DNA of 64,000 bases from Ascidia mentula (lineage: Eukaryota; Chordata; Ascidiacea; Phlebobranchia; Ascidiidae). Positions 5,965 to 55,100 of the stretch are shown here, piece after piece; position 1 is the stretch's first letter; every line of letters begins with the position of its first letter. The notes below the pieces were generated by a model, which was not told the DNA's origin, ran no database searches, and saw nothing but the letters and a program-made list of their open reading frames with translations. The stretch is taken from assembly GCA_947561715.1 (NCBI GenBank), contig OX387199.1, positions 5,275,001-5,339,000 of the forward strand, written 5' to 3'. A program made the translations under genes and the position numbers.

Positions 5965-6609
5965 AGTTTCACCCTAAATCTTAAAAGTAATAAAACTACA
6001 TTTAAAATATATTGTAGTAACAATTGAATGTGGTAAATTAGAAAAAGTCTCTATTTAGGAATTTATTGATAATCAACTTTACCCTATCGCGTTCGCTTGC
6101 AACTAACTACGTAACGTGACCACTAGCACGGGTTTCCAGTTTGTCAATTACGCAGCTTTCAATTTTACCCTTTTTCTTAACATTATCCTGGAACCGGCAA
6201 TAGAAATCTCGCGCATTCTATGCACAACAATCTTGTTGTCACCAGAAGTTTATCACTCAAAACTACAACTGTTTGTTTAAATCAAAACATTTTTACGAAA
6301 TATAATTACGGTATTTGTCTTCACATATCACGAAAACATAAAAGCGAAGAATCCCTACCAAAAAAGGTAATGCTATTACAAAGCTATTGCAAGTTTTAAA
6401 ATTGAAATGCTTTTTAAGCAGACCCAGCGCCAGCGGTGTCCACAAGAACATCTTGAAAATTAAGCAGGAATAACAATAAAAATCTTATTGCTAAACAAAA
6501 CTACCTAATGGTGTTTCCCCATTTTATATCTGTTTTTGGCTTGTTAGCTATTTTACTTTATTTAACGAATAATGTATGATAACGACTGGGTAAACATACT
6601 TTACCAAAC
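5965..6609. promoter_or_regulatory. Divergent promoter region between NUDT17 and PSME3IP1
   Basis: This 645-bp AT-rich interval separates two oppositely oriented start codons, so it must hold the 5' regions of both genes. I see no clear TATA box or named transcription-factor site that I can defend. The assignment rests on gene geometry only. Confidence 0.5.
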
Positions 6610-7257
6610 ATGAATAAGTTCGTAAGTGAATCCGAAATTGCTGAAAAGCGTCGCGTTCGCCAAGAAGAATGGGAAAAAGTTAGAAAAGCGGAAGATCCTG
6701 TTGAAGCACCAGAGCCAGATGAAGCTTACGATCCAAGATCGTTGTACGACCGCTTGCAGGAACAGAAAGACAAAAAACAAAGCGAATTTGAGGAAAGTAT
6801 CAAGTTCAAAAACCAGTTCAGGGGAATTGATAAAACCGAAGCAGAGTTCCTTGACATGGTGTCTGATCAGGCCTCGAAACTTGAAAAGCAGAAGAAAGAC
6901 GCAGTGGAAAAGGAGTTGAATGATTTCCGTGCTGCTGTAAGAACTGTGAGGACAATCGAATCAAAAGAGGTTGCAGAAAATGTTCCAAAATCCCTGACTG
7001 TTCCTCCCAAAAAGTCAAGTAACAAACAGGTCAAATTATTGCAATCTGGAATTAAGCGGAAAATCACTACTGCTGTGTCTGATGGTGGTGAAAAAAAGTC
7101 TCTGGGTAACAGCGAATCTATGTCTGATTCAAACGACAACAAAGGCCATAATGTTATGATAAATGACACTGAAAAAATGGCCAACAAGAAACCGCTCCTG
7201 ACTGGGTTGGTCAGTTATGATTCTGATGAGAATTCAAGTGAATCTGAAAGTTCATAA
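6610..7257 (+). CDS. PSME3IP1: PSME3IP1 (FAM192A/PIP30)-like protein, single exon
   Basis: A 215-codon frame starts at MNKFVSESEIAEKRR. The N-terminal half carries the diagnostic FAM192A/NIP30 core: RRVRQEEWEKVRKAEDP, then YDPRSLYDRLQEQKD, then FKNQFRGIDKTEAEFLD, predicted as long charged helices. A variable middle follows, then a serine/acidic C-terminus (YDSDENSSESESS). In mammals the equivalent acidic tail is phosphorylated by CK2 and binds the PA28-gamma proteasome activator (PSME3) in the nucleus; this family knowledge fits the tail seen here. Human protein is 254 residues, so this is a slightly short orthologue. An AATAAA signal follows within about 40 bases of the stop. Confidence 0.93.
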   Translation: MNKFVSESEIAEKRRVRQEEWEKVRKAEDPVEAPEPDEAYDPRSLYDRLQEQKDKKQSEFEESIKFKNQFRGIDKTEAEFLDMVSDQASKLEKQKKDAVEKELNDFRAAVRTVRTIESKEVAENVPKSLTVPPKKSSNKQVKLLQSGIKRKITTAVSDGGEKKSLGNSESMSDSNDNKGHNVMINDTEKMANKKPLLTGLVSYDSDENSSESESS

Positions 7258-8402
7258 CAATTGCTGTCTTGGCAAAATCAAAAAATGAAAATAATAAAGA
7301 TGGTGAACAAATGAACAAAGAAACTTTCTTAATGCATTACTGCGTTTTGTTTACAATTATGAATAGTTTTTGCAATTAAGTATCTGACCAATAAGTTAAA
7401 AAACAATGCTTAGTGTGGTACTTTTTAAGTTTGTGACAGAAGTTAGGCTTTTTTCTAGTTTTAGAAAAAAATGACAACATAAATTGATATTTTTTTCTAC
7501 CTATGTTACATGTTTTTCAGCTGCATTAATACATGTCAGCTGCATTAATACAACTTGTGTCTTTTAATAATCTTTAAAACTAGTATTGTGGCTGCATGGG
7601 ACCATCTACACAGCAAGATTTTGTAAAGGCTTTTGGTCCTTTGTGTCTAACTTTGATAGATTTGCATGGAGAAAAGAAGGGCTTTACATGCAACCACAGA
7701 TGATTGGGTATGAAACCCAAATACATTTTTGTTGCTTTTGACTTTGTAACCAGGGGGCCAAAAAGGGAGGTAAAGCTAAAGCACTACTCCAGCAAAAAAA
7801 ATTAAACAAAATGTAGAAGCGAGAGATGGACTATTCACAAAACCACCAACGATTGGGCATTTTAACCAGAGCTGGTCGAGCACGATTGGAAAAAAATTGT
7901 GAAACCTGTATTTCTCCCCCCCGCATAAAAAGACTAATCACAATTAAAGAACGGCAAATGTTGACTTACAAGGGAGGGGTCCGATGTGGACAAATAGGCC
8001 AAGTGTGTAACCTGACTTTAACGATTAATTTCTCTTCAATAATGCAGCCTTAACTTCTTTCTGATTTGTTCGCCCACTTTTTAACCAATTAAAGGCCCGG
8101 CACCATTGAACTGGAGATATCCCGAAAAAAATTTCGCAAAGTTATTTTCCTCTTTTTGGTATTTTAGGGCCTTTAAAAACTGCCCAAATTCACCTTGCAT
8201 CCGTGACAACCAACCAATGCATCCGTGCTCATTCAACCCTAAAATGACGTTCATGCATCACTGGTTCCTTTTTTACTTGCTGTTGTGACAAGACAAGGAG
8301 TATGAAATGGGCATTTCCCTCCGGAGAAACTCACTTTATTAGAAATAAGCGGCCTTTAATTAAATTATTTCTGCAAGTTAGGTGGCCTCTTACCCTAATT
8401 AT
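7258..8402. other. Intergenic, nothing recognised
   Basis: Beyond the likely PSME3IP1 polyadenylation signal near 7292, I see no gene, RNA or repeat here that I can support. The open frames at 7826-8053 and 8106-8288 are short, have no splice context and resemble no known protein. Confidence 0.5.
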
Positions 8403-8645
8403 TTAAACACCACAAACTTGATTGGAATAACTGCTGTATGTGTAAGTTGGCTTATCAGGTTTTACACTGTAGCGTTTTTGTGCGCGTTCTTCTTTCATCT
8501 CCGTGTATCTGACACCAATCAGGTATAACAATATTTTAACAAAGATGGCACAAACGTACGGCAACAGTCCAAGCGAAACCACAAGTAACAGAATGAGTGG
8601 AATTACCACAGAATGGGTGGAATCACACCCACCTCCACCAAAACA
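8403..8645 (-). CDS. Possible 3' terminal exon of a small membrane protein
   Basis: The frame from 8645 to the TAA at 8403 (81 codons) has no ATG near its start but follows an acceptor (TTTACTAG), so it reads as a terminal exon in phase 0. It begins CFGGGGCDSTHS, continues into a strong hydrophobic segment (VVIPLILLLVVSLGLLPYVC), then a charged stretch (RYTEMKEERAQKR) and a Tyr-rich tail (KPTYTYSSYSNQ). It looks like one transmembrane helix plus a short cytoplasmic tail. No upstream exon was found before the NAT gene that ends at 9120. It may belong to a gene interleaved with NAT or be a relic. I do not recognise the family. Confidence 0.35.
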   Translation of the reverse strand, partial: CFGGGGCDSTHSVVIPLILLLVVSLGLLPYVCAIFVKILLYLIGVRYTEMKEERAQKRYSVKPDKPTYTYSSYSNQVCGV

Positions 8646-9119
8646 CTAGTAAATGCAATTCGTTACATATACAAAGCACCGGTCAAAGACGTCGGCAAGG
8701 CATGTAAAAGGGCGGCCCAACAGATTACAATAGTTTAGAGTCCAGATTATTGTTTTAGAGTTTGAGCGATTGTTGACATAGGGTGTTCAGGTTGTTATCT
8801 TATATAAATATAACTGTGTTTACTATAACACAACACAAACTAAGCCCATTAAACTCATTTGTTGACAATAAACAAATAGTACATTAGTAAACGCAGGATT
8901 GTATTAAAATCAGTAAAGCATACAGAACCACTTGTAATAAAAGACTATGTTGAAATCAATGAGGTCGAACGAAGTAAATACAAATGTTTCATATTCAGTT
9001 ACTTGAGGCAGAGTACACTGTGGTGTGTTTTTCACAATTGGCTAAGCACCATGTACGAACAAACTGAAACCATACAAGATAGCATTATAAATACACTAAA
9101 GGGAGTTCCTAAATTAAAC
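8646..9119. other. Intergenic, nothing recognised
   Basis: AT-rich sequence between the possible terminal exon and the 3' end of the first NAT gene. I see no coding exon or RNA gene. Confidence 0.5.
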
Positions 9120-10447
9120 TTAAGTGCTAAAATTTTGAGTGTGGCCCGTACGCTTTTTCATTTCACTAAAAAAGTTGACCTTGTGTCTCACTTCATATTT
9201 ATACAATTCCTTACAAACGTTGACGATTTCTTCATCACTTTCCATAACTTTCTCCACCACGATTTTGTCAGTATTAGGGTCTATGCTTTCTTTGATGACA
9301 TAATCGTGTCCAAGCGTTTTAATGAGACGTTTCGGCTCATAACGGTGCAATAAAATCTGTGTCTGGAAATCTCCATTCTTTTCATCATGATACTGATCAT
9401 TGCATTTGTTATAATCCCCTAGTTTCGTCGGTTTTGTGGTCATGCGAAAAAGTGGACTCCAATGGTCCGATTCCTCTTTAGCACATTTCTCATTGCAGTA
9501 ACCAGTCGATGGCCCGGGAGGCGCTGGACCTTGTTTAATAATTTGGCCTGCACAATACAAATATTTACTTGTAACATTTTCAATTTAACACAAAAAAAAT
9601 TCGCCATTCATACTTGATGTAAAAGGCACAGTTAATAGCCAGGCCAGCATCCCCGGCCCTTTGGTTAAGATCCCAATTTTTCAATATTTGAAATCAGTCA
9701 TGCTTAACAAAAAAAACTTGTTTCAGTTATGCTTAAAAAAACTGATTTGAACCTTTACTGTCTAGAACTGTTTTCTTGTGTCGTTCGATGTAAAAATGAA
9801 AACTGTCTTGTCCCGGGATGTTTCGTGATCTGTACATTGCATGAGTTTCAACATGTGGGTGCATGTGTTGAATTTTCATGGGGCCTACAACAGGTCCACC
9901 AGGGTCGCAAAAGTAATATTCCCCATCAACATATATCTGTAATGAAAACTAATTGTTTTAATAAAAACAAAATGCAATAGTCGAGAATTTCATGATACAG
10001 ACGTTGTTGTACTATACAATCATTTTCAGTGTAAAATGCATGTATTGAAGTATTGAAGATTGACAAAACCTGAAGTTATGTTCCTTTAAATTGCAAAAGT
10101 ATGTTGGGTAGACTTACAAATGGAAACATGTGAGAATAGGGTGGTGTGTAGCAACCCCAGCCAGGATGAAAGAATTCCCCTTGTCCACAATGAACTGTGT
10201 ATCCCAGTTGTTCCAGAAGCCACTTGAAGAGCCAGTTCAGTTCATAGCACATTGCGCCGCTTCTGTTGACAACTATCTTCTTGTACATGGTTTCAAGATC
10301 CAATACAATACGATCTCCTCCAAACATATCCAAGCTCGTATAGGGCACAGCTATCTTATGGGCAAGAGAAATTGCACCCAAGTTTTTCAGATTAGGTTCT
10401 CGCGAACCATTGTAAGCAATCCTCTGAAGATACTCGTCCACATTCAT
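9120..10447 (-). CDS. Arylamine N-acetyltransferase 1, 3 exons
   Basis: Exons 10447-10118, 9936-9753 and 9547-9120 (intron phases 0 and 1) encode 313 residues. The catalytic triad is in the expected places: Cys67 (SGAMCYELNWLF), His106 (YSHMFPF) and Asp122 (YYFCDPGG), close to Cys68/His107/Asp122 of human NATs. The early motif VPYTSLDMFGG corresponds to VPFENLNMHCG of vertebrate enzymes. NATs transfer acetyl from acetyl-CoA to arylamines and hydrazines in the cytosol. The C-terminal third (CNEKCAKEESDHWSPLF) is lineage-specific in appearance. A second copy with the same exon lengths (330 and 184 nt) lies at 16517-18020 on the same strand. ATG 10447 is the first in-frame start and aligns with the paralogue. 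Confidence 0.92.
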
Positions 10448-19648: not shown

Positions 19649-21478
19649 ATGAACATTTTCCACGTTGCTTTCTGTCTTGTCTTCTTGTTCGAGAACACCG
19701 AGGTGACGTCGATACGTTTTAGCAAACATCGTAAACCAAACTAAACATCGATAACCAATCGTTTGCTGTGGTGATATAACTACAAGACATACACTTGCTG
19801 CCAACAATTTTAACTTCGTCTAACTCATATTACGTTTTTATGTACAGGCGGACCTGACGTGCTTTTTGGGCAATTCATCATACCCATGCGAAGGTATGTA
19901 TTGCTTGTAGTTTCTTGGGCTCGACTTGTAATAAAATTACTACAGTTAATGAGTAATGCGTAAGTTTAGTAATCTCAACACTTACGTTTTAACACTGGGG
20001 TGCTGCCAAAAGTGAAGTATTTTAACCGTACATTACTGCATAGCAATGAGCCCAAAAAGGCATTTCGGTAGTGAAGCCATTTTCAGTAATAGACCTATTT
20101 CGACATATAAGATCTCATCGGTGTAGCTGGTATATGTTGCACATAACTGGTAAGACCTTAAAGGTTCATACACAACGAGTTCTTCGCGTTACTGCCGCGT
20201 ATATGTAGTCTCACTCACCACACCCAACATAACATATTAGCCGGAGCTCAAGGCGGTGAGGAGATGGCGATAAAAATATGTAAAAAATATCATGGCTCTT
20301 TTGCCTCAATATCAATGTGCATTTCTCTATTGTTTGCAACAGAGAAATGCTCATGTTGTTTCAGATCACGGTACACAGGTTGCTTATTGTTGTGACGACT
20401 TGGTGAATGGAATCTGCTGTTTCTACACCGCTTGGTGGGACACGTGGTGTAAGCAAAGAACCCGCAATCTCTATTTTAAAATTTGCTTTGCCCTCCTTTT
20501 TTAACCGATCACAAAAATTGATTTTTTCATTGTGAACACCCCTGTATAGTCATCATAGCTTGGCTTCGTAAAATTTCACAATGAGCGAATTTTTTAAAAA
20601 AGGTGCGAACAATTTGGAGTTATCTTGTCGCGATAGAAAAGCCAAAGCTAATAAGCTACTCATGCCGAAGCAGCAGACTGCAATAGCACTTCGAAAAAAC
20701 ATCTACTCTTTTTTAATCTAAAACAACCTATTTCACACTTTCAAGATTTTTGGATGGGAATGATTCTAGCAATAATCCTCGTCGTTTCTGTGTTCCCAAT
20801 CATCCGGAACAAATGTTGCGGAGAATCACGTGATGCGGAGCAAAATCACTCAACCGAAGCGGTCGACGACCCACGACGAGCAAACGAAATGGTTGGTTTA
20901 AACACAAACAAGTGTTTCTAGGTCATGCATGCCGCCCAACCTTCTATGGTAAACGATTGTCAATGCATGTATGTTACAACACAAATAGCTACTGTATGCG
21001 CGTGTGTCCTTATATCTATCCCACCATAAATAACATAACAACGTCATATATAGCCAACGCGAGCCTCATATAGCTATAGCTGTGACGTCATTCCTTCCAG
21101 CTCCAGATAGATGTGATGTCAGACCAACAACACCATTGTATTAAACTGATGATGGCATAAGTTTTTGTTGCATCGTCAGAGTTAAATCAAGCATGCCAAT
21201 GTTTTTTGCAATATTGGCCAGTATTTTTGACCCAAGAACTTCATATAAAAAGTGTATTTGACGTGATTATTTCGTCGCGAAACCGTTTGTTGCTTAAATA
21301 CATATGTGTTCTTGTGTATAAAACGCATTAACAGGAGTTGCCGGAAGTGACTTACTATGCTGACGCACTTCCCACTTACGAAGATGTTGAAGCTCAAGGG
21401 ATCCCGGAGGAATATCTAAAATACGCCGAGAAAGGGGAAGCGAATCCCGGCTTTGAAGTATCTGTAGAAGTCGAATAA
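19649..21478 (+). CDS. STMC6 family member B: small single-pass adaptor, 5 exons
   Basis: Exons 19649-19702, 19848-19893, 20365-20448, 20746-20891 and 21335-21478 encode 157 residues with the same phases as member A. Signal peptide MNIFHVAFCLVFLF; ectodomain with single Cys (LTC, YPC), then AYCCDD and GICC, then WWDTW. Exon 4 begins Y-F-W and holds the helix (MGMILAIILVVSVFPII). Exon 5 encodes ELPEVTYYADALPTYEDV, a tail almost the same as in member A, with the LPTY motif. Superfamily and inferred role as for A. Exons 2-4 differ strongly from A while exon 5 is conserved, so outside and inside evolve under different constraints or exon 5 has been converted. Intron 2 carries a decayed hammerhead-like element (20099-20137). 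Confidence 0.82.
20099..20137 (-). repeat. Decayed hammerhead-like element in intron 2 of member B
   Basis: The minus strand reads AGCTACACCGATGAG, then ATCTTATATGTCGAAATAGG. This parallels the intact ribozymes at 28841-29073 (AGCTGCACTGATGAG and ACAGGTCGAAACAG), but the catalytic CTGATGA has become CCGATGA and stem II is broken. It looks like a relic of the same repeat family. Confidence 0.5.
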
Positions 21479-22895: not shown

Positions 22896-25572
22896 ATGTC
22901 GGCAATAATTTGGTCTGCTCTGTTTTTTGCATTTTTTGGGCCAAGTTATGCTCAGGTACGTCACTTTATATTCTAAAAAGCAAATAAAAGTAAATGGGGG
23001 TTAATACAATAAGCTTGTTGCTTGTTTTTGTTTTGAGACAAAGTAAATTTTATGGCTTCGTTATGTTCAGACAGACAAACGGAATTGTACAACCGCACAA
23101 AACCAGACAAAAATTTGCGAAGGTAAGCTTGGAAACTTCTGAGAGTTGAAAAAATCTTGTGTAATTTACTTCGTACTGATCAAATTTGTTTGAAAACTAT
23201 ACTTTAGGCAGCTGTGTATTTTAAATATATGTAATGAGTATGAAAGCCCAAGGTTTATTAGTAGCTGTGAGTTTTCAGACTTACTCACTGCAAGTGAGTT
23301 TCAGACTACTCACTCTAAATATATGTAATAAGTTTTCAGACTTACGCACCAAAATATTTTACTTCGCCTTTGATCAAAGTAAACAATACATTAATCCAGG
23401 TTATGCATAAGCACGTTGCTTACTTAAAACTGCGATAAAGTTACGATAACAAATTTATTATGTTTAATATTTAATATTTGTTTTCCTGAAATCGACCCTT
23501 TTCCAAGGCCACTTCTGTGCGTAACACAGATGAAAACTTCACATTTAAATATACAAAGCCAAACAACCTCGTGTCAAAACCAAAGAAAACCTGTTTTTTT
23601 TAAAAAAAATCGTCTGGTTATGTCAAGTTTTATTTCATTAAAGTTTATGTAGCATGACGTATACCAGATCGAATTAGTTCTGCTGGTCATAAATTGTTAT
23701 GTGATACAAGAAATTTGGCTGTAGATAGCATTTCTGGCACAAGTGTCACCTTGGGCAATTTTCTTTAACTTTCTCGCAGTGGGAAAAATAAACGAACGAC
23801 TGACAAACTGTTTACTATTAACGCAGACACAGCAGTGGAAATTGGATACTGCTGCGATGCCCAACCCAGTGGCTGTTGCCATTTCACCCCAGGGGTCGAT
23901 TGGTGGCAGCAATGGTGTAAGTAGAAAGATTTTATGAAATTTTCTCTTATTTTACAAAGTTCTTGCCACCTAGAATAGAAGTCAGGGAGTGACTTTGAGG
24001 TAACAAACAATACAGAAAAATTTAAACTTTCGGGTGACCCACAGGTTGGGAAACACTGTTGCAATACTAAGTAAACTTTACGATAAATTAAAAATATTTT
24101 CTATGCAACTGACGACTTTTGTTTGAAAACGTGTTCAGGTTTAAGAAAACTTTTGACAAAAATACCCACCATAAAAATCATAAAAAATACGTTTTTATAG
24201 ATTTCTGGCTGGGGTCGATTTTGTTCATCTGTCTTATGGTGATGTGCTGTCGGTGCGTGATATCAAGGCGCAGGCGACCTGTAAGGAACAATAACCCAGT
24301 CTTTGACGACCTACCGCCGCAGTACCAACCCGGACCAATGCAGATTCAGATATCACATATACCGTTAACGTATATGGCGCCACCACCAGATTCGGAGGTA
24401 ATTCCCACTGTACCCAAGTTGCCATCCTCATTTTTAAGCTGTTCCAACCATAAACGTTCTTATTTTTAGTATGTTTTAGTTCGAACAACGTTAAACTCCG
24501 GCTTTGTCCATTTTTACCACAAAACTTATTACAGTACTACATAAAATTCGTACATTCGTAATCTTGCAATATCTATAAACTGTAAGATCATTGAAGGTAA
24601 AAACTCTTGTTCAGAAGTCCTTATTTTTGGTTGGTAATAAATTAGTGGTTGACAGAACACGCGGCGAATTTCAACCTCCCCGGTTGTTAGGGCAGTCGTC
24701 TGCGCTTATTACTAAACTATCAGACGTTATTTTAAGTAAAGTTGGGGGAACAACAGTTACAAAATACGGGTTGTAGGACATTCTCACCTTGGGGAAAGCC
24801 CCCTTCGGCACTTTTTAAGAGGCGAAATGCGCCGATGTTTTTTAAATACGTCAGTTTGGTTGTGGTTTTTATTACTGTTTCAACGGCTTACCTGTATGAT
24901 AGTTTACGCTGAGCAGGGACATTCCCCAAGTTCTATAATGTAGCACACGAAACAGCCATGGAATTTCAATTCGTCACGTGGCCAAGACAATTCTGCATGA
25001 GAAAAGTTTTGCAAGCATGCTGGGCAGAAAAAAGAATTTAAAAAAATACGCAAGCAGATGATTTTGGTTATGTCTCATCTAAAATTTCTCGGAAATTCTA
25101 TCACACAATGTGTGGTTGTCTGTTATAAACTACATATATTGCATTGGTGTTTTTTTTTCCTTTAGCGCTATCGGTTACCAAGTAGATCCGTTTGGTCATA
25201 GTGCTCTCCACAGTGGTTCGTCTCTGTTTTTTGGTACACAGTATAGGGTACCCAACAGATCGACGTTGACCGGAACGGTACCACAAAGTGAAAATTAGTG
25301 TTCCTGCTAGTGTAGAAGCTAGCACAGTGCCACTTCAACAGCTGCACTGATGAGACCTTACAGGTCGAAACAGTGCGTGTACACACCCTGCCTGCAGCTC
25401 CAACATCCCTGTATGTTTGAGCAAAAAGTTCTCAATATTTTATTTGCAATATTTTCAGGATAAACCGGAATATGACATTTCGAATTTACCGACGTACGAT
25501 GAAATTTGCCAGACTTCAACAACAAACGAAAACACCACTGATTGTGACGCAACAGTCCCAGACAACAAATGA
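22896..25572 (+). CDS. STMC6 family member C: small single-pass adaptor, 5 exons
   Basis: Exons 22896-22955, 23071-23122, 23827-23916, 24201-24397 and 25459-25572 give 170 residues; phases match A, B and D. The signal peptide MSAIIWSALFFAFFGPSYAQ ends at the exon boundary. Six ectodomain Cys (RNC, KIC, YCC, GCC) precede VDWWQQW. Exon 4 starts Y-F-W with helix LGSILFICLMVMCCRCV, a basic RRRRPVR stop-transfer and DDLPPQYQPGP, a true PPxY. Exon 5 adds LPTYDEI. Together these give two possible WW-domain ligands. The exon-3 acceptor at 23826 was chosen because it gives DTAVEIGYCC, aligned in length with the other members; a CAGCAG downstream acceptor would remove two or three residues. Intron 4 contains a one-base-broken hammerhead element (25340-25399). 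Confidence 0.85.
25340..25399 (+). ncRNA. Hammerhead ribozyme relic in intron 4 of member C
   Basis: All hammerhead parts are present in order: stem I strand AGCTGCA (25340-25346), core CTGATGA (25347-25353), stem II GACCT/AGGTC, GAAA (25367-25370), stem III ending CTG, and the second stem I strand TGCAGCT (25393-25399). Compared with the intact copy, the base before the cleavage-site C is C (25391) instead of T. The NUH triplet GTC is therefore GCC and the A15.1-U16.1 pair is lost, so it should be inactive or weak. About 200 bp upstream belong to the same repeat, but the left ribozyme arm is missing. Confidence 0.75.
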
Positions 25573-27906: not shown

Positions 27907-29504
27907 ATGAAAGTGGTAATTTGTGGTTTTCCACGGACTGGAACCAAATCAACGGCAGAGGCGCTCCGCATACTGGGGTATGATGTCTGGGACTACATGG
28001 AATGCTTTGAACATCACCGGGAGCAATGGAAGAAAATCATTGACCTTGGATCAACTCCGGAGGACTTCCGCAAGATGTACGAAGATGTGGACGTCGTGGC
28101 TGACTGGCCTCCTTGCTTCTTCTGGGAACATATTTTGGAAGCTTTTCCAGATGCAAAGGTTGTATTTTACTTTAACGTTTTTTTGATTGTTAGATTATTT
28201 CAAACGCAATACAACTCATATACAGCTACTAACTACAGATATATTTTCAGCTCGTTTTTACGACACGAGACGAGGACAAGTGGCTCGCAAGCACCAACAC
28301 TCTCATTCAAACGAAAAACAACAGTCGTGTTCTGAAACTTCTGTACACCATCACCTTGACTGGTCGCAGATATCATTTGTTTTGTAAAAAGTATGGTAAG
28401 TGATGCTACGGTTTTCTGTGTTTGTTGAAAAGGTTTGTTAATGCTGCATGGTTGTTCAATAATAACCGGATATTTACGCAATCATTTGTGACCGTAAATG
28501 TGTTTTGATTGGGCGCTGTTAATTTGTGCGCCCAATCACCCAACAATTAAATCCAACTTTCAAGAGGAATGTCCCGAAATTTTATTTTTTGTTAAGATTT
28601 GATGTTCTACGATGCTTTGCGCACTTACCCGTGGGACAACATGAAGTTTAAAGAAAACGTTTTGAGGCTCCGATATCGTCAACATAACGCACATGTTCTA
28701 ATGGTAAGTACTGTAAAACAAGTCGGAAAGACTGAAAGTTTCAAACCTTTTTTTTGTTCATTTTTTGTGCAATAAACTAAAAATATTATTAAGAAAAATG
28801 AAGTTATTATATGCGCAAAAGAGCCATAATAATCAATGAGAGCTGCAGACAGGGTGTATACACGCACTGTTTCGACCTGTAAGGTCTCATCAGTGCAGCT
28901 GTTGAAGTGGTACCTAGTTTAGCACCCAACATATCGACGATTGACCGAAAGGTACCACAAAGTGGAAATCTGTGTGCCTGCTAGTCTACTAGCTAGCACA
29001 GTGCCACATCAACAGCTGCACTGATGAGACCTTACAGGTCGAAACAGTGCGTGTATACACCCTGTCTGCAGCTCTCATTGACGTTATTAGCTGTCGAAAT
29101 ATTACTACAACTGCAGTGTGTTCAAAATGACAGTTGCAAAAAATTACCGACCTCTTACTATATCTGTTTTTGAGATGTGTTGTGTGTTTGTTGATTTACA
29201 AAAGTGACTGCAACTTTCCCTTAAAACAAAATCGCCGCACCAACTCTTCAAAAACTTTTTTTAGAACGCGCCCAAGGACAAACTGTTGGTATTTCAACCA
29301 AGCCAGGGTTGGGAACCACTTTGCAAATTTCTAGACAAGGAAATTCCATCAGTAAAATTCCCCCACGTCAACAAGGGTTTCTCATGGTATGACGAAATGC
29401 TGCAAAATCACCCGATGGGAAGACGAATGAAACGCGAAGCTTTCTTACTGACGGGATGTTTAACCTGCATGTTTTCAATTATCACGTTTTACTTTTTTAC
29501 ATAA
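27907..29504 (+). CDS. P-loop sulfotransferase-like protein 1, 4 exons
   Basis: Exons 27907-28158, 28251-28395, 28597-28703 and 29265-29504 (phases 0, 1, 0) encode 247 residues. The N-terminus MKVVICGFPRTGTKSTAEAL is the PAPS-binding P-loop (G7-x-P-R-T-G-T-K-S15) of the sulfotransferase family common in invertebrates (Pfam Sulfotransfer_4 type). VFTTRDEDKWLAS in exon 2 resembles the 3'-phosphate-binding region, and HVNKGFSWYDEM lies near the C-terminus. The protein ends in a hydrophobic stretch (FLLTGCLTCMFSIITFYFF), suggesting a tail anchor. The expected reaction is sulfate transfer from PAPS; the acceptor is unknown. It is tandem with a paralogue at 32207-33550; exon 1 is almost identical and exons 2 and 4 differ. 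Intron 3 contains the paired hammerhead element. Confidence 0.9.
28841..28900 (-). ncRNA. Hammerhead ribozyme, left arm
   Basis: Read on the minus strand from 28900 to 28841 this is the same 60-base sequence as 29014-29073: stem I AGCTGCA/TGCAGCT, core CTGATGA, stem II GACCT/AGGTC, GAAA, stem III ACAG/CTGT plus GTGT/ACAC, and a GTC cleavage triplet. It is antisense to the host gene. Confidence 0.88.
29014..29073 (+). ncRNA. Hammerhead ribozyme, right arm
   Basis: Every core element is present: stem I 29014-29020 (AGCTGCA) pairs perfectly with 29067-29073 (TGCAGCT); CTGATGA 29021-29027; stem II GACCT 29028-29032 with AGGTC 29036-29040 and loop TAC; GAAA 29041-29044; stem III ACAG 29044-29047 with CTGT 29062-29065, capped by the self-complementary GTGTATACAC. 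The predicted cleavage site is after C29066 in the triplet GTC. It is in the sense strand of sulfotransferase 1 intron 3, so nascent pre-mRNA or the excised intron could be cut there. Confidence 0.88.
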
Positions 29505-52163: not shown

Positions 52164-55100
52164 CTGTTGACACAAAACACGGTAAAAGTTAGTGTGAGTT
52201 TAAAGGGGAGTGTTGGCAAACGCGCTGTTTGATGTTGGTCGGTTCCCCTTTAAGTTTTATCTCTAGATTTAAACATGCTGTTACATCAAAATCCGCAAGA
52301 AGTTAAAGGTATAGGACGCAACTTGTGCAGTTTAGGCAAGAAGCTCATCTTAAACGGCTTTAAATGTAACAGGTTGAAAAAAGCTTTTAGCAGAAAATAC
52401 ATAGATAAGCAGAATGCTTAGGACCACATAATAGTAGTGTAATTATGTATTGCCAATTACAAAGCATTGATATAGGTGGGTAACAAATTAAAGAAATACG
52501 TATTAACTGAGCAATTAGTCCCCAGAGTAAAAAATTAAGCTGTTTTTAAAATTAAGTTACAATATTTACAGAAAAATCGTAATACAGATAATTATTCGCG
52601 TATTTACAGCTTTTACGCGTATTAGAAACAGTCTGAAAACGCGGCGGTCGCATGCAAAAGACGCGATTATTTGAAAGAAAACAAGTGATCACATGCTTAA
52701 TTGATGGACCACTTGTAACAGGAAACCACAATAGAAAACAGCCAGAAATTCATGCTATAAAAGGCAACAAAATTTGCCTCCAAGTCGGACAATATTTGCT
52801 GGTGAAGAGTTGGTTGATATATTTACCAACCAACATTTCGACCACACCTGTAGTCCCGTTTGAACAAATATGAGGTTAAGTTAGGTGCATAGTTTGTTAA
52901 TATTAAAGGAAGGGTTAGCGTCGGTGCACCATGAGGGCAAAAGAGGATGGTTCATTACTTGTATCGCCAAATCGCCAGAGCGATTGCAACCAGAAGGACC
53001 ACTCCCAGGATTAGGCCAACAACCAACCCGACCAATGCTCCGCCTAAAAACCATTCGGAGCAAATAAGAAAACCAGTGTTTCCAACATTATTTACGGCCG
53101 TAAAACGCACAATCACAATCGTTGAAAGGTGTTACATAACCCTCTACCGCCACCACGTGGCATGTCGGCCACGCAGCAGTTTGAAAACTACGCATCAGTG
53201 ACGTTTACATTTCAGTAATGATGTAACGTGTGACGTGCGCATGCAGTTTTTAGAGTTCTGTGCATTCCACTTCATGGTTGACATTTAGCGCGTTTGACTG
53301 CCATAGAAACGAATCAGTCTGTTTTGTTTCTAAAATTTTTATTAAACGTTTTTTTTAACTGTAATATTTGTGCTCTTACTCTTGAAAAGGTAAACACTGC
53401 GCTGTTGCTTTAAGTGATGCAAATAATAATACTATTTGTTATTTCAGACTTTCTTAGGTAAAGATGACCCTAGTGACACTAACTATGCCCGATGACTAAA
53501 AGCAGGAAGTAAAGGTTGGACTTACTCGTTCTTTCGCATCTGTCGCCTTCGTACCACTGAGTACAACCACACACTGGATTAATATTCAATGTTGTCGTAC
53601 ACGAGCCTCCGTTGTAACAATAATCTTCCCCATCCAGTTGGCATTGGGCCTCACAACTGGAGAAGAATACACACATAGTTAAGTGTTATCAACATCTCGA
53701 TGCTGTGTTAAACAACGTTGTTGACCGCACAAGCTTATTTGCTGAGGTCCGAACAAAAGTGGATTATAAAATGTTAAACAGGTTAAGGAAGTTTTAGTTT
53801 GGGAATCCTGTGTACTGATCTTGTTATCAGAATAAACCAGCCGGGCTTATAAATTAATTTGTTTACGTTATACATCCATAAAAGTCAATTTGTAGGTTCT
53901 ACTTGAATAAGTGATATTGAAGATGTCTAATTGTAGGCAAAATATATTCCAGACAAAAACACGATCATTACGACAAAAATGGTATCGTCTTTTTACTTGT
54001 CAAAAAAAAACAATTACCAAGTTTGTAAGCGATTCTTTTACGTTTTCAATAAATTCATTCGTATTTAATGTTTAATTTCAACTCTGATATACAAAAAAAC
54101 AACAACTCAGTGCTTAACTTTATGCGTCGCGATCATAAATCAAAGCAGAATAATAACGAAGATCGTTCTTAACAGCATTAAACTTTCAAAACTTCATGCA
54201 TCTTACTTCGTCCCTGGGTTGGTCTCATTCTTGTCTCTGAATCCTGCAGCACACTTGCAAGTGAACCCGGGGTGATCGAAACTGTCCACACACTCTGAGT
54301 TGGCGCTCGGGTCGCAGTTGTGATACTGGGGGTCCGAACACTCGTTGAAGTCTGCGGAATAAATGTTTGCCATAACGAAAACCTGGTTTCAACATCAGAA
54401 ATAGACTATAAGGTTTACTTCGGTAAAGGTAGGCGAAGTGGAAATAATAAAAATAACTTTGGACATTTTACACATAAATTTATTCATTTTGAAAAATGGA
54501 ATTTCGATTCACGACACTTCTATACCGAGCTTTCAAACTAATATAAAAAATTGTGTAAATTGTGATGGCTCCCCTTTGCTTATAATATAAAAAAAGTTCT
54601 TCAGAGCTGCAGACAGTTCTGCACACTATTTCGATTGATAAGGTCTCATCAATGCAGCTGGTGACATTGGACGAACTAGCTGGGTACCCAATGAATCGAC
54701 GTTGACCGAAAGGTACCACATAGTGGAAATGCCTGCTAGTCTAAATGCTGGTGCAATCCAATGCCACAGTCACCAGCGTCACTAATAAGTCGTTATACAT
54801 AGAAACAGTGCACACAACTGTCTGGCTCTTATAGATTACTATGGTCTTTTCGCTCATATAAAAAAGTTTCACGAAAACTCGAAAGACAATTAAGCACAGT
54901 AACTCACTGGAAGTGGTGACAGATGTTAGATTGGAGTCGAAATCTGTCGGGTTGAGGGAACTTAGACTGGCGGCAGTCGCGTTGGATGAAGTTACTCCTC
55001 CAACACGAGCGTTGAAGTCAGCGATGGTACTTCCACTTCTAAAGGTGACCAAACCCTCGAACCCAACGAAAGTGGCACCGATTTGTGCCAACATTGCTGC

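What the first reader, a model, noticed from the sequence alone, without database searches (positions are those of the whole stretch)
28841..29073. Palindromic mini-element with an intact hammerhead ribozyme on each strand, inside an intron
Both arms encode a canonical hammerhead: perfect 7-bp stem I, CTGATGA, 5-bp stem II, GAAA, stem III and a GTC cleavage triplet. Because the arms are inverted, either strand's transcript carries one functional-looking ribozyme and the complement of another, so folding into a long hairpin competes with self-cleavage. The sense copy (cleavage after 29066) sits in sulfotransferase 1 intron 3 and could cut the intron or unspliced RNA. Hammerheads are known in animal repeats and introns; this paired inverted design with no coding capacity may be a distinct non-autonomous family.
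Basis: partly seen in the sequence, partly recalled or inferred. Interest (0 to 1): 0.75.

Follow-up and report, generated by a model that had tools for sequence, protein, structure and literature searches.

The report
Head-to-head hammerhead-ribozyme retrozyme insertion
A tiny self-cutting-RNA parasite of what is probably an animal genome sits here as two head-to-head copies, and its insertion scars match those of Penelope-like retrotransposons, which points to the machinery that moves it.

Summary
In detail: window 28810-29078 carries the same 60-nt type I hammerhead on each strand, inside a Sulfotransfer_4 intron. The interpretation changes: this is not a family of paired-arm mini-elements but one insertion of a 293-nt non-coding retrozyme whose hammerhead core matches 2,729 places in this 196-Mb genome. 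Copies occur single, in tandem and often head-to-head (12 of 20 distinct insertions in a sample not chosen for pairing); no convergent pair from one event was seen. TSDs of about 12 bp flank many whole pairs, so a pair arises in one integration event. In 23 of 23 inverted loci with a TSD score of 9 or more, exactly one outer end carries an extra ~30-nt 'tail' (ends classed by eye). Head-to-head GIY-YIG (Penelope-like, PLE) pairs of the same genome show the same signature in 11 of 12 pairs examined, as do published PLEs. Best reading: PLE machinery integrates this retrozyme from both sides of the target break. PLE mobilisation of animal retrozymes is a published proposal; the shared footprint is, in the papers I searched, new evidence for it. 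The window's paired ribozymes are predicted to be locked in a hairpin. Cleavage was not tested.

The parts
28799..28809 (.). candidate left target-site duplication TGAAGTTATTA
   Evidence: 11 bp, 1 mismatch with the right one; weak alone
28810..29078 (.). head-to-head retrozyme insertion (whole element)
28810..28905 (-). left arm: antisense partial unit, outer end with the ~30-nt tail (about u38), inner end about u236
   Evidence: inner end read by eye from the sequence against the unit
28841..28900 (-). type I hammerhead ribozyme, minus strand; predicted cleavage between 28848 and 28847
   Evidence: cleavage place by eye
28900..29078 (+). right arm: sense partial unit, u128 to about u12, outer end without tail
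29014..29073 (+). type I hammerhead ribozyme, plus strand; predicted cleavage after 29066
29079..29089 (.). candidate right target-site duplication TGACGTTATTA
28704..29264 (+). host intron (GT..AG) of a Sulfotransfer_4 gene that holds the element
   Evidence: splice sites by eye
25163..25400 (+). second copy of the same family, single, 86% to the unit; cleavage triplet GTC reads GCC; no TSD found
54603..54861 (.). third, older head-to-head copy (about 75%), tail on the right end only, 10-bp AT-rich candidate TSD

Best explanation
This is one insertion of an animal-type hammerhead retrozyme, a 293-nt non-coding, non-autonomous retroelement. Likely cycle: genomic copies are transcribed; tandem copies self-cleave at the hammerheads into unit-length linear or circular RNA (inferred from published animal retrozymes). 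A protein encoded by a Penelope-like element (reverse transcriptase plus GIY-YIG nuclease) cuts both target strands about 12 bp apart, and each 3' DNA end primes reverse transcription inside the RNA, one at about u40 and the other about 30 nt upstream at about u10. Both cDNAs grow toward the RNA 5' side and their ends join, often by short homology, giving a head-to-head inverted pair with a TSD around the whole and one tailed end. Shown here: the unit, the orientation rule, TSDs, the one-sided tail, and the same footprint on resident GIY-YIG elements. Inferred: circular RNA, the PLE enzyme as agent, two-sided priming. The ribozymes of the window copy are probably silent because its RNA folds into a long hairpin.
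For: 2,729 core matches. Period 293, tandem and inverted forms. Inverted pairs are divergent: 8 (-,+), 5 same-strand, 0 (+,-) among neighbours within 600 bp in the 100 sites that one search lists; 33 divergent joints in the loci. TSD score >=10 in 29 of 52 loci against 31 of 2037 shuffled pairings (in L028 and L069 the shared word is partly or wholly element sequence). Exactly one tailed end in 23 of 23 inverted loci with TSD score >=9 (ends classed by eye). GIY-YIG hits of the same genome: 17 (-,+), 7 same-strand, 0 (+,-) neighbours within 8 kb; 12-15 bp TSD and a one-sided 23-61-nt extension in 11 of 12 pairs examined. Joints overlap by >=4 nt in 10 of 25 (gap under 6) against about 2% of random joins. 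In 7 older pairs the arms share source variants (3.0% discordant against 25.8% between loci). Literature: the PLE protein PAc cleaves and extends both strands, and the tail is the stretch between two RT start sites (PMC11167929, main text read); inverted pLTR with one 31-bp tail and a 9-bp TSD (PMC3846280, passages); PLEs proposed as retrozyme drivers (PMC7229834, discussion read).
Against: No expression, circRNA or cleavage data. No specific partner PLE and no shared tail sequence were identified; of the paired GIY-YIG elements only L053's ORF was checked for a reverse transcriptase. L033 is inverted with both outer ends of the tailed type and no TSD; 13 of 36 inverted loci score below 9, the window among them. 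8 of 20 distinct sampled insertions are not paired. Antisense self-priming also gives head-to-head pairs with joint homology. In vitro, PAc showed no difference in start site between the two strands, and hammerhead mutants did not affect insertion (PMC11167929). In PMC3846280 some PLE copies lack TSDs or have direct pLTRs only. The LINE control had only 27 hits. In 15 young pairs arm discordance equals that between loci (2.2% against 2.6%), so a common source is untested there. No shuffled null was run for the PLE TSDs.
Confidence: 0.8

Rival explanations
1. The pair is made before integration: an antisense retrozyme RNA folds back, primes itself and is copied, and the resulting inverted dimer is inserted by PLE machinery.
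For: Proposed for head-to-head PLEs in PMC3846280 (passages). Joint homology and common source of both arms in older pairs fit equally well.
Against: Does not by itself explain why exactly one outer end bears the tail nor the in vitro extension of both target strands by a PLE protein (PMC11167929).
Confidence: 0.15
2. LINE enzymes move the retrozyme and the inverted pairs are ordinary twin priming.
For: Twin priming gives the same geometry (recalled); LINE-type endonucleases are present, 27 hits.
Against: None of the 27 LINE-type hits has a neighbour within 8 kb (read by eye), whereas GIY-YIG hits have 17 head-to-head neighbours. The one-sided ~30-nt tail is a PLE feature. Start sites cluster at two places.
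Confidence: 0.05
3. A cut-and-paste MITE or foldback DNA transposon whose terminal inverted repeats hold hammerheads.
For: 98% inverted arms flanked by a candidate TSD.
Against: Arm lengths and inner joints vary from copy to copy; single and tandem copies share the unit; the two outer ends are at different unit positions.
Confidence: 0.01
4. A domesticated intronic ribozyme that controls the sulfotransferase pre-mRNA.
For: Sense-strand hammerhead with intact core in intron 28704-29264.
Against: Member of a family with 2,729 core matches; hairpin preferred by 94.8 kcal/mol over the active fold. Conservation was not tested.
Confidence: 0.03

Closest known systems
Metazoan non-LTR retrozymes with type I hammerheads (PMC7229834; outline, sections 13 and 17, passages seen)
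   Same: Type I hammerhead, non-coding unit within the 170-400 nt range, tandem copies, TSDs longer than 4 bp, high copy number, coexistence with PLEs
   Different: There copies are described as tandem repeats; 'inverted', 'tail' and 'head-to' do not occur in its main text. Here head-to-head pairs with a one-sided tail are common. Circular RNA not tested here.
Penelope-like elements (PMC3846280 passages, PMC11167929 main text)
   Same: Head-to-head inverted copies, short TSD around the whole, ~30-bp tail on one end, 5' truncation, hammerhead association
   Different: No ORF; a hammerhead with stem III, whereas PLE hammerheads are described as minimal variants lacking it (PMC7761336 passages)
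Rfam RAGATH-1-hammerhead RF03152
   Same: Best ribozyme match on both strands, 30.0 and 29.1 bits
   Different: Below the curated cut-off of 56.3 bits

Membership tests
Metazoan retrozyme | type I hammerhead with intact core and stems | tested here: met
   32 of 69 ungapped instances identical to the window motif (copies mostly chosen for a perfect core)
Metazoan retrozyme | non-coding unit of about 170-400 nt found in tandem | tested here: met
   293-nt period; tandem in L018, L031, L034
Metazoan retrozyme | TSD longer than 4 bp, dispersed high copy number | tested here: met
Metazoan retrozyme | expressed as linear and circular RNA; self-cleaves in vitro | not testable with these tools
   no RNA data; folds only
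Penelope-like element | reverse transcriptase and GIY-YIG ORF | tested here: not met
   293-nt unit is too short to hold one; a resident PLE, L053, has both domains
Penelope-like element | integration footprint: head-to-head form, TSD, one-sided ~30-nt tail | tested here: met
   exception L033
Penelope-like element | minimal hammerhead lacking stem III | tested here: not met
   stem III present
MITE / TIR transposon | fixed terminal inverted repeats around a constant core | tested here: not met
   variable arms and joints
Rfam hammerhead families | score at or above gathering cut-off | tested here: not met

The most novel reading that the evidence does not exclude
Animal retrozymes are PLE-driven (a dependence others have proposed, PMC7229834, PMC8969392), and PLE-type integration is two-sided by rule: in each paired insertion the two DNA ends prime at two different fixed sites ~30 nt apart on RNA of one source, so that exactly one end bears the tail. 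The 293-nt retrozyme, free of ORF and pLTR complications, would be a minimal substrate for working out how PLEs integrate.
Probability: 0.6. Interest if true: 0.72.

Novelty: new variant of a known kind. Interest (0 to 1): 0.58.

Why it matters
Which enzyme moves animal retrozymes is open; the papers I saw offer PLEs only as a candidate (PMC7229834 discussion; PMC8969392 passage: 'may rely on PLEs'). A specific, countable footprint shared by retrozymes and resident PLEs makes this testable in any genome by computation. The one-tail-per-pair pattern also limits models of PLE integration, of which relatively little is known (PMC11167929, start of abstract).

Tried and rejected
Rejected: MITE/foldback reading (variable arms); unique-element reading (2,729 core matches); two independent insertions (one TSD around the pair; arms share source variants in 7 older pairs); domesticated intron ribozyme (repeat family, hairpin cost).

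Led nowhere: Rfam at curated cut-offs. Stem variation showed no pair changed on both sides to another standard pair, and stem I pairs were broken in 1-6 of 27 distinct sequences; these were mostly copies chosen for a perfect core, some at arm ends, so the test is uninformative. Scans for hammerheads with stem III in L039-L060 found only the retrozyme pair beside the PLE pair in L053; by eye L040 and L043 hold a minimal, stem-III-less hammerhead-like stretch. The LINE control had too few hits. Partner PLE and host species were not identified; 'animal' is inferred from intron-bearing genes and GIY-YIG PLEs, and a tunicate was a guess that I do not claim. The tunicate paper search and passages of PMC8704543 told only that 9 type I hammerhead loci were annotated in Didemnum vexillum.

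Rows dropped and limits: one search used 52 of 59 loci (7 duplicates out: L009, L019, L027, L030, L037, L032, L067); L073-L075 and L079, duplicates by their flanks, stayed in. Searches dropped those 4 too. L028 was counted as single because its larger + copy was taken, not its (-,+) pair with a 21-nt right arm. The sample of 25 loci (L061-L085) took the last 7 C2 sites and 18 of the first 20 C1 clusters that one search lists; the two left out (4552386, 7339415) are both paired. Merging duplicates by flanks (by eye) gives 20. L086 and L087 were picked because one search showed pairs. L009-L038 came from a search with the palindrome as query and are biased to paired copies. One search scored 40 of 1,867 candidates and 150 of 382, so those lists are partial; one search lists 100 of 2,729 places. 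Of 17 head-to-head GIY-YIG pairs, 5 were not end-analysed.

Full report
What is there. The window holds two identical 60-nt type I hammerheads, on + at 29014-29073 and on - at 28841-28900. Folded alone, the + motif takes the hammerhead shape as its minimum-energy fold, with stems of 7, 5 and 4 bp plus an inner helix (the z-score of -1.31 is unremarkable and the centroid structure differs). The arms are 98% complementary over 81 nt with 87 nt between. Rfam at its cut-offs reports only two tRNAs in the window; with relaxed thresholds RAGATH-1-hammerhead matches both strands below its cut-off.

The family. The window lies in a 195.8-Mb, 79-contig genome of an unidentified species, probably an animal (inferred). 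A 35-nt hammerhead core matches 1,369 + and 1,360 - places at up to 3 mismatches, its reversed control none. Tandem copies give a 293-nt period; I number the unit from the cleavage site, u1 = first base of the 3' product. The window has further copies at 25163-25400 (single; triplet GTC changed to GCC; no TSD), 54603-54861 (old, head-to-head) and a fragment at 20095-20142.

Architecture. Of 25 loci not chosen for pairing (20 distinct insertions after merging duplicates by flanks), 12 of 20 are head-to-head, left arm on -, right arm on +, and 8 of 20 single. Some of the 12 are imperfect: L061's right arm is 49 nt, L076's is two pieces of 16 and 19 nt, and in L062, L063 and L065 about 50 nt between the arms do not match the unit. 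Among the 100 core sites that one search lists, neighbours within 600 bp are 8 (-,+), 5 same-strand and 0 (+,-). The only (+,-) neighbour within 400 bp in the fetched loci is in L061/L032, one locus, where a second copy of 83% identity lies 226 bp away.

One event per pair. Words shared by the two flanks of the whole element reach score 10 or more in 29 of 52 loci against 31 of 2,037 shuffled pairings; in L028 and L069 the word is partly or wholly element sequence. In the 23 inverted loci with score 9 or more the shared words are 9-14 letters, mostly 12-14, for example 13 in L010, 12 in L014, L018, L053 and L078, 13 in L087. The window's own flanks, TGAAGTTATTA and TGACGTTATTA, score 7, which 317 of 2,037 shuffled pairings reach, so for this copy the TSD is only plausible.

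The tail. Outer ends fall at two unit places, about u2-u14 (A) and about u35-u45 (B, with a ~30-nt tail). In all 23 inverted loci with TSD score 9 or more, one end is A and the other B (classed by eye; L026, L065 and L080 are the least clear). If the two ends chose independently, one-of-each could occur in at most half of the pairs, so 23 of 23 has a probability of at most about 1e-7 (own arithmetic). The 13 inverted loci below that score are mixed: the window, L023, L062, L066, L068, L074, L075 and L076 read as one A and one B; L033 has two B-type ends and no TSD; L061, L072, L073 and L079 have an end that could not be classed.

Resident GIY-YIG elements do the same. 121 GIY-YIG hits (150 of 382 candidates scored) form 24 neighbour pairs within 8 kb: 17 (-,+), 6 (+,+), 1 (-,-), 0 (+,-). 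GIY-YIG is the C-terminal domain in the 699-aa ORF of L053, which also carries RVT_1, so (-,+) means head-to-head; I take the other hits to be PLEs without having checked their reverse transcriptase. Of the 17 pairs I examined the outer ends of 12. In 11 there is a 12-15 bp repeat at the borders and an extension on one side only: 32, 23, 35, 40, 35, 38, 35, 37, 30, 37 and 61 nt. L054 has a 12-bp match but its arms are too rearranged to measure. LINE-type endonuclease hits (27) have no neighbour within 8 kb, a weak control.

Joints and source. Arm joints overlap by 4 nt or more in 10 of 25 joints with gap under 6 (of 33 joints), against about 2% of random joins; overlaps came from BLAST and may include mismatches. 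In 7 older pairs the arms disagree at 3.0% of source-variant positions against 25.8% between loci; in 15 young pairs the two rates are alike (2.2% and 2.6%), so nothing can be said. In the older pairs both arms thus derive from one source, or were homogenised later.

What it works like, and what it is. By anatomy it is a metazoan retrozyme (PMC7229834: outline, sections 13 and 17 and passages read). By footprint it is integrated the way PLEs are. PMC3846280 (passages) describes an inverted pLTR, a 31-bp tail optionally on one of the inverted pLTRs, TSDs of 8-10 bp in several copies and none in others, head-to-head as the most frequent inverted form, and proposes antisense self-priming. PMC11167929 (main text read) shows a PLE protein that cleaves and extends both strands and identifies the tail with the stretch between two RT start sites; it also found no start-site difference between strands and no need for hammerhead cleavage in vitro. 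I put these together as two-sided target-primed reverse transcription. The element is not itself a PLE: it has no ORF, and its hammerhead has stem III.

Activity. In a single unit (u65 to u41) the hammerhead is part of the predicted minimum-energy fold; in the window copy forcing it costs 94.8 kcal/mol on either strand. In the 293-nt circle the active fold costs 2.0 kcal/mol. So single and tandem copies look able to cleave and the paired copy looks silent. These are predictions.

Novelty. Searches and the passages read show PLE mobilisation of retrozymes as a proposal, and no report of inverted retrozyme pairs or of the PLE tail on a retrozyme. Most listed papers were seen only as listings, and the library lacks most subscription journals, so this is not proof of absence.

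Noticed in passing
G000:C67:6134028-6146916 (L051, L052): Array of five GIY-YIG hits, two on - then three on +, 2,870 bp apart within each strand, open frames of 559-892 aa reported; repeats 99.97-100% identical in the parts compared.
   Followed up: partly
L040, L043 (minus strand, about 1942 and 1961 in reverse-complement coordinates): A minimal hammerhead-like stretch without stem III near a GIY-YIG hit, as described for PLE hammerheads (by eye).
   Followed up: no
L053:7560-7845: A head-to-head retrozyme with 12-bp TSD about 400 bp beside a near-perfect 4.8-kb head-to-head PLE palindrome.
   Followed up: partly
L060:1-1716 and 6394-9501: A ~138-bp-period satellite on both sides of GIY-YIG element fragments.
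   Followed up: no
L002, L003, L005, L008 and others listed: Further hammerhead-core variants with different stem II or loop sequences, perhaps other retrozyme families or chance.
   Followed up: no
window 28860-29054: Rfam MIR6140 scores 51-52 bits on both strands, below its cut-off of 140; I take it to reflect the long hairpin, not a microRNA.
   Followed up: no
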